This document shows positions 43,688 to 62,869 of a stretch of 64,000 nucleotides of DNA, piece after piece (position 1 is the stretch's first letter; every line of letters begins with the position of its first letter). The position numbers were made by a program, and so were the translations under genes. The notes under the pieces are model-generated. The model was not told the origin of the DNA. It saw only the letters and a program-made list of their open reading frames with translations, and ran no database searches. The DNA comes from Mortierella sp. BCC40632 (Eukaryota; Mortierellomycota; Mortierellomycetes; Mortierellales; Mortierellaceae). Where the stretch lies: contig WAEK01000003.1 in assembly GCA_011634665.1 (NCBI GenBank), positions 142,501-206,500 on the forward strand, read 5' to 3'.

Positions 43688-43832
43688 GGATAATCTTGTT
43701 TTACATTCTCCAACCCTTGCATGGTTCCCTCAACTCTACTTGAAAGGGACCATCCTGTTTTCAAAAGTGATTGATCAAGTCCTTCTTTCATAGATCACTT
43801 TCTACTTTTTTCTAGAGCCACATGCAGCAGGG

Positions 43833-44052
43833 TCACACCGATGCTCTTGCCTTACCTCCTTCCGTGCTGACAATCACCACTTCTCGAGGTTTCTGCACCT
43901 CGCCTTTGCCAGGTAGATTTGGTCGATAAAGTTCCTGTTACTCGGGTATGGCTATTGCGAACGACAATATGGATCTGGGTACCTTCTCTGCCTCATTGAA
44001 GTGCTGACACCATCAATGAGTCTTGCTGTTGATTCCCTCAAGTTGGATCAGC
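43833..44052 (-). pseudogene. Damaged copy of an outward-facing gene end (left outer arm)
   Basis: Read on the minus strand it encodes NQQQDSLMVSALQ, then an in-frame TGA and a deletion of about 30 nt, then RNSHTRVTGTLST and, after loss of the splice donor and most of an intron, GEVQKPREVVIVSTEGGKA ending RASV and TGA at 43835-43833. The partner on the right outer arm (62,144-62,492, plus strand) keeps an open frame, a donor and an acceptor. Differences between the two copies include several third-position changes. I do not recognise the protein. Confidence 0.55.
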
Positions 44053-44322
44053 GATTCCGGGAAGGAGGCGGGGGACGGGGGCAATAATATGTGAAGATAG
44101 ACGTCATCTTAATGGAAGGAAAAATTTTTGGAGTCCATTGAAGCCTTAAATTTCACCTTTAGTGTCAAAAAAAAAAGAGCCAGAAACTTGCTCGCTTAAA
44201 AAAGAGAAGAAGAGAAAGAAAAGAGAGTTTTGCTTTGAGTGTTTTGTAACTATGATTCACTCCGCTCTGAAGCCAGGTCGAGAACCAGACAGCTGGCGGT
44301 GAGCGTTAAAAGTAGGATGCAA

Positions 44323-44514
44323 GGCAGGAAAAAAACCATAAGGGTTTTAAAAAGCTGCCAAACCCCTCATTCCTGGCTACAGCCAGGCGGACAAAAAGAC
44401 AGCGGCCCTATTTCTAGGGGCCTGCCGATCATCACCGCCTGAGGCCCAAAGCTGTAGCAGAGGAGAATGAGGGAAAAAAAAAGAGGCCTGGGGGGGAGGT
44501 CCTTGTATTTATAT
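44323..44514 (-). promoter_or_regulatory. P1 left arm: TATA box and conserved stem-loop
   Basis: Read on the minus strand: GAGATATAAATACAAGG at about 44,518-44,502, a hairpin AGGCCCCTAGAAATAGGGCC near 44,425-44,406, a second hairpin CCTGGCTGTAGCCAGG near 44,391-44,376, and the stem-loop GGCAG...AAAACC-CTTAT-GGTTTT...CTGCC at 44,359-44,323. One of six copies in the palindrome. Confidence 0.6.
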
Positions 44515-45821
44515 CTCCCAGCGCGACAGTGACCGTCTTCGATACGACGCTTTCCATCACTAGCCAAAATGTGGGACGCCCTCAGTGATGATAGAAAATG
44601 ATGAAATTAGTGCGCTTCGTTCTGTCAGCTCGAGACTGCGTTTGGCTCTCTCCCCCATCGAGGGCATCGAGTGGTCTGTTGATCAAACAGGCAGACGAGG
44701 GAGGGGGAGGGGAGCAGTGTGATATTTTCTGGTGAACTGGTGCAGGGGAGACAACCACTGGACCATGGACCACACTTATATCCAGATCCAACTCATTCTC
44801 TGTGCCCCCTCCAGAACAGCCTCCGCTCCCACTCCGACCACCCAGCACTGGCCACCTCAACTCTATCCATCGACAGTCAAGAGGATACACAGGTTGTTTG
44901 CAGACAGTGTGTGGTTGTCTGGATGCTGGGTGTTGCTGAGTAGACGAGCGGTCCTTCTCTCTCTCTCTCTCTCTCTCTCTCTCTCTCTCTCTCTCTCTCT
45001 CTCTCTCTCTCTCTCTCTCTCTCTCTCTCTCTCTCTCTCTTTCTCTCTTTCTTTCTTTCTTTCTTCGTGGCCGGCAACTACTATCATTCGCAGTGTCTTT
45101 CTGCCTTATCTCTTTGTTCCTGGTCCTCTTTTACCTTTTGTTCTGAGTGGTCTCTATCGATGAGTTAGACCCAACGAATGCCATTCTTCAGGCACGGCGA
45201 GCGCGTAGAAACAACCAGCCCCATTTGCACAGTTTTTTTTTTCTGTTATTGTTCTGGGGTATACATTCCCATCCGTCGAGGAATATAAAAAGAGGATAGG
45301 ATGGGAGAGGAGGAGGGGAAGGGGAAGAGGAGGACGAGGAGGAGGACGAGGAGGAGGAGGAGAAATAGAAAAAAAATGAATCGCTTATCTGCTCAGCTAC
45401 ACCCAGCACCCAGACGACCATACACTGTCTGCAAACAACCTGTGCATCTTCCAGCTGTCTGTGAATAGAGTTGAAGTGGCCAGTGCTGGGTAGTCGGAGT
45501 GGGAGCGGAGGTTGTTCTGGGGGGTGGATGGCACAGAGAAGGAGCTGGATCTGGATATAAGTGTGGTCCATGGTCCAGTGGTTGTCTCCCCTGCACCAGT
45601 TCACCAGAAAATATCACACTGCTCCCCTCCCCCTCCCTCGTCTGCCTATTTGATCAACAGACCACTCGATGCCCTCGATGGGGGAGAGAGCCAAACGCAG
45701 TCTCGAGTTGACAGAACGAAGCGCACTAATTTCATCATGTTCTATCATCACTGAGGGCGTCCCACATTTTGGCTAGTGATGGAAAGCGTCGTATCGAAGA
45801 CGGTCACTGTCGCGCTGGGAG

Positions 45822-46015
45822 ATATAAATACAAGGACCTCCCCCCCCCAGGCCTCTCTTTTTTTCCCTCATTCTCCTCTGCTACAGCTTTGGGCCTCAGG
45901 CGGTATTGATCGGCAGGCCCTAGAAATAGGGCCGCTGTCTTTGTCCGCCTGGCTGTAGCCAGGAATGAGGGGGTTTGGCAGCTTTTTTAAAACCCTTATG
46001 GTTTTTTTTCCTGCC
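45822..46015 (+). promoter_or_regulatory. P1 right arm: TATA box and conserved stem-loop
   Basis: TATAAATA at about 45,823-45,830, then the same two hairpins (GGCCCTAGAAATAGGGCC and CCTGGCTGTAGCCAGG) and the stem-loop with AAAACC-CTTAT-GGTTTT between GGCAG and CTGCC at 45,977-46,015. Confidence 0.6.
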
Positions 46016-46157
46016 TTGCATCCTACTCTTAACGCTCACCGCCAGCTGTCTGGTTCTCGACCTGGCTTCAGAGCGGAGTGAATCATAGTTACAAAAACAC
46101 AAAAAGCAAAACTTCTCTTTTTCTCTTCTCTTCTCTCTCTTTTTTGGTCGCTCTATC

Positions 46158-60911: not shown

Positions 60912-61108
60912 ATATAAATACAAGGACCTCTCCCCCCCCCAGGCCTCTCTTTTTTTCCTCATTCTCCTCTGCTACAGCTTTGGGCCTCAGGCGGTATTGA
61001 TCGGCAGGCCCTAGAAATAGGGCCGCTGTCTTTGTCCGCCTGGCTGTAGCCAGGAATGAGGGGGTTTGGCAGCTTTTTTAAAACCCTTATGGTTTTTTTT
61101 CCTGCCTT
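60912..61108 (+). promoter_or_regulatory. P3 right arm: TATA box and conserved stem-loop
   Basis: TATAAATA at about 60,913-60,920, both hairpins, and the stem-loop with AAAACC-CTTAT-GGTTTT between GGCAG and CTGCC at 61,069-61,108. Confidence 0.6.
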
Positions 61109-61263
61109 GCATCCTACTCTTAACGCTCACCGCCAGCTGTCTGGTTCTCGACCTGGCTTCAGAGCGGAGTGAATCATAGTTACAAAACACTCAAAGCAAA
61201 AACTCTCTTTTTCTCTTCTCTTCTCTCTCTTTTTTTTTTTTTTTTTTTTTTGGTCGCTCTATC

Positions 61264-61430
61264 ATGTCTCTCTGGTGGCAAAGTAGAGCTGATCTCATCC
61301 AAAATGAACTTCTCAGCACTTCTATTCCACCGACCATCTCACTCCCTCCCCTGTCTTTGGCTCTATTGTATTTTCTCCGCAAGGGTCATGGCAGCCAAAT
61401 GAAATAAGAGCGACCATCGATATTTTTGAT
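61264..61430 (+). pseudogene. Frameshifted copy of the small P-element frame (P3 right)
   Basis: Starts MSLWWQSRADLIQNELLST; one extra T before the CCACCGACC stretch and one extra C after CTCCC shift the frame. Homology stops at about 61,430. Confidence 0.5.
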
Positions 61431-61585
61431 GCTGCAACCAAACGAATGGATATCCAACGCGTCTCCCTCCTTCTCTCTCTGTCTCTCTCTCTCTCTTTTT
61501 TTTTTTTACCTTACTTCTCTTATCATATCTCTTTCTTTCTTTCTCTACACACTAAACTTTTCTCTTTATTATCTAATGTTGACAC

Positions 61586-62492
61586 AGCACAACAGACCCT
61601 CGCAGCCCATCTCGCTCCGTCTTCATACTCTGTAACAGTTGTATCCAGCATTTTGTTGCCTTGGAAGGCAGACTACCAGTGCACGAGCATCTATTCTGCT
61701 GCTTCGGTGTCTGTCACAGCCCTTGATGAGCCTGACAGTGACTCCGAGATACCCAACAGGAACGGACGAGGAGCTGTGAAGCGATGGTGCAAACCGCGGA
61801 CAGGGATGAATGCTTTTGAGAGACGAATTGGTGATTGATCGAAACGAAAGGAAGGTGGAGCCGTGGGAACTCGCTCGCATAGAGGTGGAGATAGAAGGCC
61901 TCATAGTAACTGATACGGACCTGACACAGAGCACAGCAAGAAATCACCTCCACTCATGATGATTCATTCTATTGCTCTGGCATCACTCCTCTTTTTTTTT
62001 TTTTTTTTTTTTTTTTTTTTTTTTTTTTTTTTTGGCAAGCAAGTTTCTTGCTCTTTTTGACATAAAAAGTGAGAGCTAAGGCTTCAATGAGCTGCAACGG
62101 ACTTTGCCATCCATTATGATGGCTTTTCTTTACATATTTTCCTCCACAACTGTTGACCCAAACTGGAAGAATCAACAGCAAGACTCATTTATGGTGGCTG
62201 CACTTCAATCGAATACTCTCAAGCAGGAGCATACTGAAGCAGAGGAAGGCATCCAGATCAATTCCATCACTCGCAATAGCCATGTTCAAATAACAAGAGC
62301 TTTATCGACCTCAGGTCTAACCAATACATTTCACTAGCATTAGCTACCTACCTTTGTATCTTAGATAGTTGCTACAACATAGCGATTAAGAACGGTGTAT
62401 TGATCGAATCTACTTGTCAAGGCGAGGTGCAGAAACCTCGAGAAGTGGCGATTGTCAGCACAGAAGGAGGCAAGGCAAGAACATCTGTGTGA
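61586..62492 (+). CDS. Possible multi-exon gene at the right outer arm, unknown product
   Basis: Exon-like frames on the plus strand: about 61,586-61,832 (after GTTGACACAG; encodes a stretch with ALDEPDSDSEIPNRNGRG and AVKRWCKPRTGMNAFERR, ending at a GTGATT donor), then a frame ending at 62,314 (NQQQDSFMVAALQSNTLKQ... RALSTS), a 107-nt intron (GTCTAA to GTCAAG), and 62,422-62,492 (GEVQKPREVAIVSTEGGKA, ending RTSV). The last two exons join in phase and end in TGA at 62,490-62,492. Their counterpart on the left outer arm is broken. The link between the first exon and the other two is a guess, as is the start. I do not recognise the protein. Confidence 0.35.
61990..62034. repeat. Poly-T tract of about 40 nt
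   Basis: Longest homopolymer on the right outer side of the palindrome, lying between P3 and the right outer arm. Confidence 0.8.
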
Positions 62493-62869
62493 CCCTGCAT
62501 GTGGGTCTACAAGGAAGCAGAAAGCGATCTATGAAAGAAGGGTTCTATCAACCATTGTTGAAGATTGGATAGTCCCTCTCAGGTAGAGTCGACGGAACCC
62601 ATACAAGGGTGGAGGATGCAAAACAGAATCACTCTTCGAACCTGGTCTAGAAAGAAAGGCAACTAAAAAACACAACAACAACAACAACAACAACAAAAAA
62701 TGGCCTCCCACTGCTCTGTCTTATCGCACTACGAACACCGCCTAGCTTCAATCAACCTACCCAAGAGAGGGGAGGCGCCTGAAAAGCTGCACACCAAAAT
62801 TTTACTTCAAGAAATCTCATTTGTCCTCTTCTCTTGTGTCCATCCACGTCTTTGGTCGTTTCCCCCAAA

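What the first reader, a model, noticed from the sequence alone, without database searches (positions are those of the whole stretch)
43688..62632. A 19-kb nested palindrome built from three palindromic 2-kb elements and two inverted 5-kb spacers
Seen directly: sequence order is outer arm, P1, S1, P2, S2 (reverse of S1), P3, outer arm reversed, with P1, P2 and P3 each a palindrome. Palindromes of this size are unstable in most genomes and are usually kept by selection, by gene conversion or by special chromosomal sites. No transposase, integrase or reverse transcriptase is visible, so a standard transposon does not explain it. I know of no described fungal element with this layout; novelty is inference.
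Basis: partly seen in the sequence, partly recalled or inferred. Interest (0 to 1): 0.85.

Follow-up and report, generated by a model that had tools for sequence, protein, structure and literature searches.

The report
Palindromic pairs of structured RNA genes
A soil fungus carries a 19-kb stretch of DNA that reads almost the same on both strands because it holds three back-to-back pairs of what look like genes for an undescribed folded, non-protein-coding RNA, and its genome holds many more such mirror-image pairs.

Summary
The genome is a 49.9-Mb Mortierellaceae assembly. P1, P2 and P3 are not isolated oddities. Each looks like a head-to-head promoter pair: two TATAAATAC boxes about 1.3 kb apart, reading outward, each followed by an RNA hairpin of 106-135 nt. 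A near-invariant motif beside the hairpin occurs 18 times genome-wide, all in 9 divergent pairs. Two diverged C21 palindromes add four arms. The S spacers hold two convergent 3' ends, each with branch point, 3' splice site and AATAAA. I count at least 31 related 3' ends, 24 in inverted pairs. Coding tests, Pfam, Rfam and tRNA searches are negative; the outward strand folds better. Patchy divergence and arms almost identical within three of nine palindromes point to gene conversion, not artefact. Best reading: a new family of structured, probably spliced and polyadenylated non-coding RNA genes held in palindromic pairs. Transcription is inferred; no RNA data were available. One palindrome has a flanking 10-base repeat that keeps a mobile-element origin open.

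The parts
44198..46325 (.). P1: palindromic head-to-head promoter pair (RNA units P1L and P1R)
51381..53921 (.). P2: palindromic head-to-head pair with two different RNA types on its arms (66% identical from the TATA through the hairpins, 88.5% upstream)
59295..61433 (.). P3: palindromic pair, same orientation as P1 (flipped relative to the larger palindrome)
44505..44513 (-). TATA box TATAAATAC of unit P1L
45823..45831 (+). TATA box of unit P1R
51926..51934 (-). TATA box of unit P2L
53227..53235 (+). TATA box of unit P2R
59606..59614 (-). TATA box of unit P3L
60913..60921 (+). TATA box of unit P3R
44365..44473 (-). 5' RNA hairpin of P1L
   Evidence: z -3.94, 0 of 200 shuffles
45865..45970 (+). 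5' RNA hairpin of P1R
   Evidence: z -5.89, 0 of 200
51774..51892 (-). 5' RNA hairpin of P2L
   Evidence: z -4.70, 0 of 200
53267..53389 (+). 5' RNA hairpin of P2R (the most divergent type; weakest fold)
   Evidence: z -1.97, 12 of 200
59463..59571 (-). 5' RNA hairpin of P3L
   Evidence: z -6.50, 0 of 200
60956..61061 (+). 5' RNA hairpin of P3R
   Evidence: z -6.17, 0 of 200
46326..51380 (.). S1: 3' parts of units P1R (+) and P2L (-), tail to tail
53922..59294 (.). S2: 3' parts of units P2R (+) and P3L (-), tail to tail; inverted copy of S1
48272..49220 (+). conserved core of P1R (modules K1 to K3), about 70% identical to the C15 and C17 palindromes; K3 holds two hairpins
49304..49473 (+). 3' module of P1R: branch point CTAAC, 3' splice site (first exon base 49361), AATAAA at 49468
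50282..50473 (-). 3' module of P2L: 3' splice site (first exon base 50416), AATAAA at 50287
54985..55175 (+). 3' module of P2R: 3' splice site (first exon base 55042), AATAAA at 55170
55986..56155 (-). 3' module of P3L: 3' splice site (first exon base 56098), AATAAA at 55991
43697..43928 (-). outer arm, downstream of unit P1L (pairs with 62398-62625, 83%)
62398..62625 (+). outer arm, downstream of unit P3R

Best explanation
The locus is a cluster of six copies of a non-coding RNA gene, arranged as three head-to-head pairs (P1, P2, P3). Each pair shares a central, very conserved upstream block about 1.3 kb long with a TATA box at each end. From each TATA box an RNA is read outward; it begins with a long imperfect hairpin. 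The four inward-facing units then run into S1 and S2, where they meet tail to tail and end in a conserved branch point, 3' splice site and AATAAA. Head-to-head plus tail-to-tail order of near-identical units is what produces the nested palindrome. The arms are kept alike by gene conversion and sometimes flip by recombination between arms. SHOWN by sequence: layout, motifs, copy number, pairing, RNA-type pairing of the hairpins, patchy divergence, lack of coding signal. INFERRED: that the units are transcribed by RNA polymerase II, spliced and polyadenylated, that conversion and flipping act on the arms, and that the product works as a structured RNA. The biochemical role is unknown; a protein-binding or scaffold RNA kept in multiple copies is my guess.
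For: TATAAATACA is present in 22 of 22 arms of 11 palindromes (18 related arms; four C21 arms), with 1221-1497 bases between the paired boxes (from the coordinates). The motif TTTAAAACCCTTATGGTTTT with up to 2 mismatches has 18 hits genome-wide, all in 9 minus-then-plus pairs; the reversed control pattern has 1. Hairpins of 8 tested arms have z -1.97 to -6.50; 0 of 200 shuffles fold as well in 6 of 8, 2 of 200 for L019, 12 of 200 for P2R. 97.3% of 377 cells pair, against 28.6-58.4% when slid. A covariance model of the 18 arms finds the hairpin core (model positions 37-83 of 116) in 4 of 4 C21 arms at E 0.002; the other three hits in 14 loci have E 1.5-1.8. K3 hairpins: 6 double-sided cells against 1.8 in shuffles, 0 of 500; covariation score 3 of 500. 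Strand: G-U 60 against A-C 4 cells in the 5' hairpin, 15 against 2 in K3; the outward strand folds better by 12 and 17 kcal/mol on average. 3' module: a pattern of branch point and acceptor has 17 hits and 0 in the reversed control; AATAAA lies 107-136 bases after the acceptor in all 19 distinct copies listed. Non-coding: the one recurrent small open frame varies equally at the three codon positions (25, 26, 26), and last exons carry stops or frameshifts between copies. S1 and S2 differ by 100 of 233 aligned bases in one bin (46555) but by 0-3 mismatches in each of 11 bins from 47555 to 50304. L017, L018 and L019 arms are 99.8-100% identical upstream within a palindrome.
Against: No RNA-seq, no 5' splice site identified, and no relatives from another species to test. 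The shuffle control of the 5' hairpin covariation is not significant (116 of 500 for the score, 42 of 500 for two-sided changes, 256 of 500 for pair types). The strand test is partly circular: the structure was chosen on the outward strand, and the same procedure run on the reverse strand gives an excess for that strand too (G-U 26 against A-C 6), though a smaller one than outward (77 against 1). K3 hairpins were picked from a fold of the same alignment; two other controls there are weak (28 and 369 of 500), and the single hairpins are only mildly stable (z -2.45, -1.60). The 22 modules aligned were found by their CTTGTAG motif, so its presence in them is by construction; both C18 modules, found by similarity, have lost the acceptor AG and the AATAAA. 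P1L and P3R have no recognised 3' module. C15, C28, C29 and C7 palindromes have 3' modules but no TATA motif of this type within 1.8 kb of the axis. In the C3/C22 pairs the arms are closer to other palindromes than to each other, so conversion is not universal, and the S1/S2 identity could also be a young duplication. 7 of the 31 3' modules stand alone. L028 has a 10-base direct repeat just outside its arms, as a transposed element might.
Confidence: 0.57

Rival explanations
1. A foldback or long-inverted-repeat DNA transposon, non-autonomous, whose long terminal repeats make each P and whose copies spread by transposition.
For: Dispersed related copies with long inverted arms and a short centre; L025 and L026 share sharp homology edges in different flanks; L028 has a 10-base direct repeat flanking its arms, reached by 2 of 500 random window pairs. 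I raised this rival from 0.15 to 0.18 because of that repeat.
Against: The other 14 of 15 edge pairs tested have no flanking repeat longer than chance gives (27 or more of 500 random pairs as long), so the L028 repeat may be a chance hit among 15 tests; edges differ between copies; no transposase family in 10 frames of the locus; each half carries promoter and hairpin, and four of six units also 3' splice site and AATAAA, in gene order; base changes mostly keep RNA pairing.
Confidence: 0.18
2. A centromere or other chromosome-maintenance site built of nested inverted repeats, as in Schizosaccharomyces pombe or Candida tropicalis.
For: Nested inverted-repeat layout of about the right size; C. 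tropicalis centromeres are 2-5 kb cores flanked by 2-5 kb inverted repeats (PMC4741521, abstract).
Against: Related palindromes are several per contig (C3 two besides the window, C15 three, C6 two, C21 two) and on at least 10 contigs; a nuclease-domain frame ends 1.1 kb to the left of the outer arm; signals are those of transcription units.
Confidence: 0.07
3. Loci whose long hairpin RNAs are processed into small RNAs (miRNA-like precursors or convergent-transcript dsRNA).
For: The 5' element is a single long imperfect stem-loop of 106-135 nt; convergent units face each other in S1 and S2.
Against: Stem arms vary between types, unlike a conserved mature small RNA; the convergent poly(A) signals (49468 and 50287) do not overlap; no small-RNA data.
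Confidence: 0.1
4. A protein-coding gene family with short exons in inverted pairs.
For: A short open frame of about 32-37 codons after AAAATGAAC or AGAATGAAC recurs in many arms; T-type last exons have a similar short frame.
Against: Equal variability at the three codon positions; frames broken by single-base indels between near-identical copies; no Pfam match reaching its cut-off in 10 frames and no homologue at E 0.001 for the one frame searched among 5.8 billion proteins.
Confidence: 0.05
5. An assembly artefact such as a foldback read.
For: Contigs C3 and C22 end inside such palindromes, so they are hard to assemble; the flipped P3 could be a misjoin.
Against: Arms differ by 2-24% and, for S1 and S2, in patches; 15 further palindromes with different divergence.
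Confidence: 0.03

Closest known systems
Gene-conversion palindromes of mammalian sex chromosomes and of the willow sex chromosome
   Same: Large inverted repeats that carry multicopy genes and are homogenised arm to arm (beginnings of the abstracts of PMC8981503 and PMC7023750 seen).
   Different: Here 1-6-kb arms on many contigs of a fungus, carrying apparent non-coding RNA genes; arm identity 76-98%, not above 99%.
Autosomal gene palindromes of parthenogenetic animals (springtail Folsomia candida; rotifer A. vaga as cited there)
   Same: Inverted duplicated gene blocks outside sex chromosomes (PMC5490193, passages seen).
   Different: Those are blocks of protein genes, and the springtail paper says concerted evolution does not explain them.
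The palindrome of chromosome 14 in the fungus Zymoseptoria tritici
   Same: A large palindrome in a fungal genome (PMC3681731, passages seen).
   Different: A single palindrome between 500 and 550 kb of an accessory chromosome, flanked by Copia remnants; no RNA gene family in the passages seen.
Inverted-repeat centromeres of Candida tropicalis and fission yeast
   Same: Inverted repeats of a few kb (PMC4741521, abstract and section list seen).
   Different: One per chromosome, defined by CENP-A; here many per contig with gene-like signals.
FAM230 lincRNA family in human segmental duplications
   Same: A family of long non-coding RNA genes formed by duplication (PMC6162681, beginning of the abstract seen).
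   Different: No palindromic pairing and no conserved hairpin in the part of the abstract seen.

Membership tests
Multicopy gene palindrome maintained by gene conversion | Inverted arms of kilobase length with high identity | tested here: met
Multicopy gene palindrome maintained by gene conversion | Arms more alike within than between palindromes | tested here: inconclusive
   Mean upstream identity 94.7% within (9) against 89.9% between (144), but the nearest neighbour is the own partner in only 7 of 18 arms upstream and 4 of 18 in the RNA part; met for L017, L018, L019 and, by whole arms, L028-L030, not for the C3/C22 pair
Multicopy gene palindrome maintained by gene conversion | Conversion tracts (patchy identity) | tested here: met
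   one pair of arms (S1/S2)
Known non-coding RNA family | Match to an Rfam model at gathering score | tested here: not met
   0 in the window and 0 in 20 loci; only sub-threshold matches at E 0.46 or more in 43600-54300
Telomerase RNA | Template complementary to the telomere repeat (here TTTTAGGG, C17 end) | tested here: not met
   The exact 19-base template-like pattern has 12 hits, all within the C17 telomere; shorter or variant templates were not searched; the conserved ACCCTTATGG does not template the repeat
Foldback or TIR transposon | Target-site duplication | tested here: inconclusive
   No unusual flanking repeat in 14 of 15 edge pairs; a 10-base repeat at L028 reached by 2 of 500 random pairs
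Foldback or TIR transposon | Transposase in the element or an autonomous relative | tested here: inconclusive
   None in 10 frames of the locus; the genome was not searched for partners
Regional centromere | One locus per chromosome | tested here: not met
Regional centromere | CENP-A chromatin | not testable with these tools
   no chromatin data
Long non-coding RNA gene | Transcribed | not testable with these tools
   no RNA data held
Long non-coding RNA gene | No conserved coding frame | tested here: met
miRNA-like precursor | Stable stem-loop | tested here: met
   (weak for P2R)
miRNA-like precursor | Small RNAs from the stem | not testable with these tools
   no small-RNA data held

The most novel reading that the evidence does not exclude
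A large new class of structured RNA in an early-diverging fungus, whose 5' form exists only as palindromic pairs (18 of 18 copies found) because the pair is the working unit: a shared two-way promoter plus an arm-to-arm exchange system that homogenises, swaps or flips RNA cassettes. Consistent signs are P2, C3-start and C22-end palindromes carrying different RNA types on their two arms under a shared, more conserved upstream block, and the flipped P3.
Probability: 0.18. Interest if true: 0.85.

Novelty: new variant of a known kind. Interest (0 to 1): 0.6.

Why it matters
Gene palindromes kept by conversion are best known from sex chromosomes and have been reported in parthenogenetic animals, where they carry protein genes. 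A fungus with more than a dozen palindromes built from one apparent RNA gene family would show that the same architecture can serve non-coding RNA, and would offer a small system for measuring arm-to-arm conversion and flipping. It also adds a candidate structured RNA family with no Rfam match at gathering score.

Tried and rejected
Rfam on the window and on 20 related loci: nothing at gathering score. tRNAs in 17 of those loci: none. Telomerase RNA was considered because ACCCTTATGG resembles a C-rich template; the telomere is TTTTAGGG and the template search hit only the C17 telomere. TTAGGG x3 is absent, its reversed control has 13 hits.

A micropeptide reading of the short frame was rejected on codon-position variability (17 arms matched; L021R and P3R were left out as frame-shifted; identical rows collapsed to 14). 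Transposon edges: 12 edge pairs, with random controls; only L028 stands out. Exact scans of prokaryote genomes gave 0 and of viral contigs 8 matches to an 18-base pattern with two ambiguous letters; I take these as chance and did not examine the loci. A protein search with one frame found no homologue at E 0.001. No species-level relative could be compared, because no other fungal genomes are held here.

Counting 3' modules: the 31 are the union (5 not seen by the others; 19; 7 more); a pair means opposite strands on one contig within 15 kb. The searches score only the best candidates, so this is a lower bound, and a further partial copy at C3:176-366 is not counted. Of the 31, 27 were seen as sequence (22, C18 x2 and C3:3.17 Mb, C6 and C29:206 kb): 25 keep the acceptor, both C18 copies do not; C16 x2, C5 and C14 were not read. 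Loci were fetched because they matched P or S, so palindrome frequency among them is not a genome-wide rate. Of the 20 loci fetched, 14 contain an inverted self-match over 1 kb, L032 and L033 form one together, and L023, L024, L027 and L031 do not.

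
Full report
What was checked. The window is contig C3, 142501-206500, of a 49.9-Mb, 62-contig eukaryotic assembly. The beta-galactosidase (GH35) frame at 20160-23063 is 68% identical to a protein of Lunasporangiospora selenospora and 39-52% to the other Mortierellaceae proteins listed, so the organism is most likely a member of the Mortierellaceae near that genus.

What P is. Related palindromes occur on other contigs. Aligning 18 arms from 9 palindromes shows the same order in each, reading from the axis outward: a conserved block of about 430 bases, then TATAAATACA, then a pyrimidine tract, a long hairpin, the string AAACCCTTAT (invariant in 18 of 18), a T run and CCTGCC, and a second, more variable hairpin seen by eye. 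A pattern search for the central string with up to two mismatches gives 18 hits in the whole genome, all in nine divergent pairs. Two palindromes on C21 are more distant members: their four arms have TATAAATACAGTG and the core of the hairpin, which a covariance model built from the 18 arms finds at E 0.002, against E 1.5-1.8 for the only other three hits in 14 loci. Paired TATA boxes are 1221-1497 bases apart (coordinates).

What S is. The core of S1 (48272-49480) is about 70% identical to stretches on C15 and C17 that are themselves in inverted pairs. Its end holds TGCTGTCTAAC, a pyrimidine tract, CACTCTTGTAG and, 107 bases later, AATAAA. A second module of the same kind lies in S1 on the other strand (first exon base 50416, AATAAA at 50287). 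S2 mirrors both. So each S is two 3' ends facing each other, with poly(A) signals about 0.8 kb apart. AATAAA lies 107-136 bases after the acceptor in all 19 distinct copies listed. Combining I count at least 31 modules, 24 in inverted pairs and 7 alone (C3:713 at a contig end, C3:3.17 Mb, C5, C6:82 kb, C14, C15:6.5 kb, C29:206 kb). Of 27 seen as sequence, 25 keep the acceptor; the two on C18 have lost the AG and the AATAAA. The 22 were collected by that motif, so they do not test it; the independent support is the pattern count of 17 against 0 for the reversed control and the similarity searches.

RNA rather than protein. Ten of the longer open frames in the locus have no Pfam match reaching a cut-off, one was also searched against 5.8 billion proteins without a homologue at E 0.001, and the recurrent small frame varies equally at all codon positions. 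The 5' hairpins of eight arms have z -1.97 to -6.50 against shuffled sequence, the weakest being P2R with 12 of 200 shuffles as good. In 13 distinct hairpins 97.3% of 377 cells pair, against 28.6-58.4% when one side is slid, but covariation against shuffles is not significant (116 of 500), because most changes are one-sided, such as G-C to G-U. Two K3 hairpins show 6 double-sided cells against 1.8 expected, 0 of 500 shuffles, and a covariation score reached by 3 of 500; two other measures there are not significant (28 and 369 of 500), and the hairpins were chosen from a fold of the same alignment. Because one-sided changes keep pairing only on the strand that is RNA, I counted G-U against A-C cells on the outward strand: 60 against 4 in the 5' hairpin, 15 against 2 in K3. 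This is partly circular. The same procedure run from each strand gives 77 against 1 outward and 26 against 6 on the reverse strand, so each strand favours itself, the outward one more strongly; the outward strand also folds better (-55.2 against -43.1 kcal/mol on average for the 5' hairpin, -104.0 against -87.3 for K3). I take this as moderate support for outward transcription.

How the palindrome is kept. S1 and S2 differ in patches: 100 mismatches in the bin at 46555, 27 in the next, and 0-3 in each of the 11 bins from 47555 to 50304. Upstream of the TATA, arms of L017, L018 and L019 are 99.8-100% identical although these palindromes differ from the others. These are signs of gene conversion between arms. 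Against a universal rule, L020 and L021 (C22 end and C3 start, 95% alike over 8.5 kb) have arms only 77-89% alike, and the own partner is nearest neighbour for only 7 of 18 arms upstream and 4 of 18 in the RNA part. P3 stands in the orientation of P1, not in the mirror orientation that the larger palindrome would require; flipping between arms explains it, a misjoin could too. In L029 and L030 the arm homology ends 79-87 bases after AATAAA, so there the arm nearly ends with the gene.

What it is not, and what stays open. Of 15 edge pairs, 14 have no flanking direct repeat beyond chance, the window's own included; L028 on C15 has one of 10 bases that 2 of 500 random window pairs match (first seen). 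With 15 tests that may be chance, but it keeps a mobile origin open, and I raised that rival from 0.15 to 0.18 and lowered the main reading from 0.60 to 0.57. Several palindromes per contig argue against a centromere (C. tropicalis layout from the abstract of PMC4741521). No Rfam family reaches its gathering score in the window or in 20 loci. The telomere is TTTTAGGG and the 19-base template pattern searched lies only within it.

Literature. Eight searches for palindromes, inverted repeats, non-coding RNA and Mortierellaceae listed 110 rows of 548 papers counted over the eight (overlaps included); none of the titles or abstract beginnings describes such an element. Most subscription papers are not held. 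Beyond listings I saw passages of PMC5490193 and PMC3681731 and the abstract and section list of PMC4741521.

Verdict. A real nested palindrome, best read as three head-to-head pairs of a new, structured, probably spliced non-coding RNA gene, part of a genome-wide set of palindromic pairs. The architecture is well supported; transcription and function are inferred.

Noticed in passing
L020 (C22:752600-762489) and L021 (C3:1-10000): The end of contig C22 and the start of contig C3 are 95% alike over 8.5 kb and both contigs break inside the palindromic repeat, so either a subtelomeric duplication or two alleles.
   Followed up: partly
L048 (C17:1203700-1204299): Telomere repeat of this fungus is TTTTAGGG with variable T number, not TTAGGG; of the contig ends looked at (90 bases printed at each side of 20 stretches, and three more ends), this was the only one with it.
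   Followed up: partly
L065 (C3:3171300-3173300): A lone T-type 3' module (acceptor intact, AATAAA 115 bases later) with upstream homology to the C28 and C29 units, not in a recognised pair: single units exist.
   Followed up: partly
L028 2012 and 8772 (C15): A 10-base direct repeat just outside the two arms of this palindrome, matched by 2 of 500 random pairs: a possible target-site duplication.
   Followed up: partly
L019 6840-7080 and 3050-3300 (C18): Both 3' modules of this palindrome have lost the acceptor AG and the AATAAA in the same way: decay shared by the two arms, as gene conversion would spread it.
   Followed up: partly
L034 and L035 (C28, C29): These palindromes have 4-kb arms with the 3' modules pointing toward the axis (tail to tail), the opposite of the P type; their promoters were not found.
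   Followed up: partly
L023, L024 (C21:276 kb and 596 kb) and L027 (C26:305 kb): Short fragments of the P upstream block without a palindrome in the fetched 9.9 kb, possibly relics.
   Followed up: no
window 42246-42563 (+): Left neighbour frame has a staphylococcal-nuclease domain (Pfam SNase); it resembles the fungal LCL3 gene (recalled).
   Followed up: partly
window 28964-31525 (+): Two frames match the first and last parts of Pfam Rft-1, probably one intron-split gene.
   Followed up: no
window 63650-64000 (-): Right flank looks like the end of a Sam50-type outer-membrane assembly protein, read by eye and not tested.
   Followed up: no
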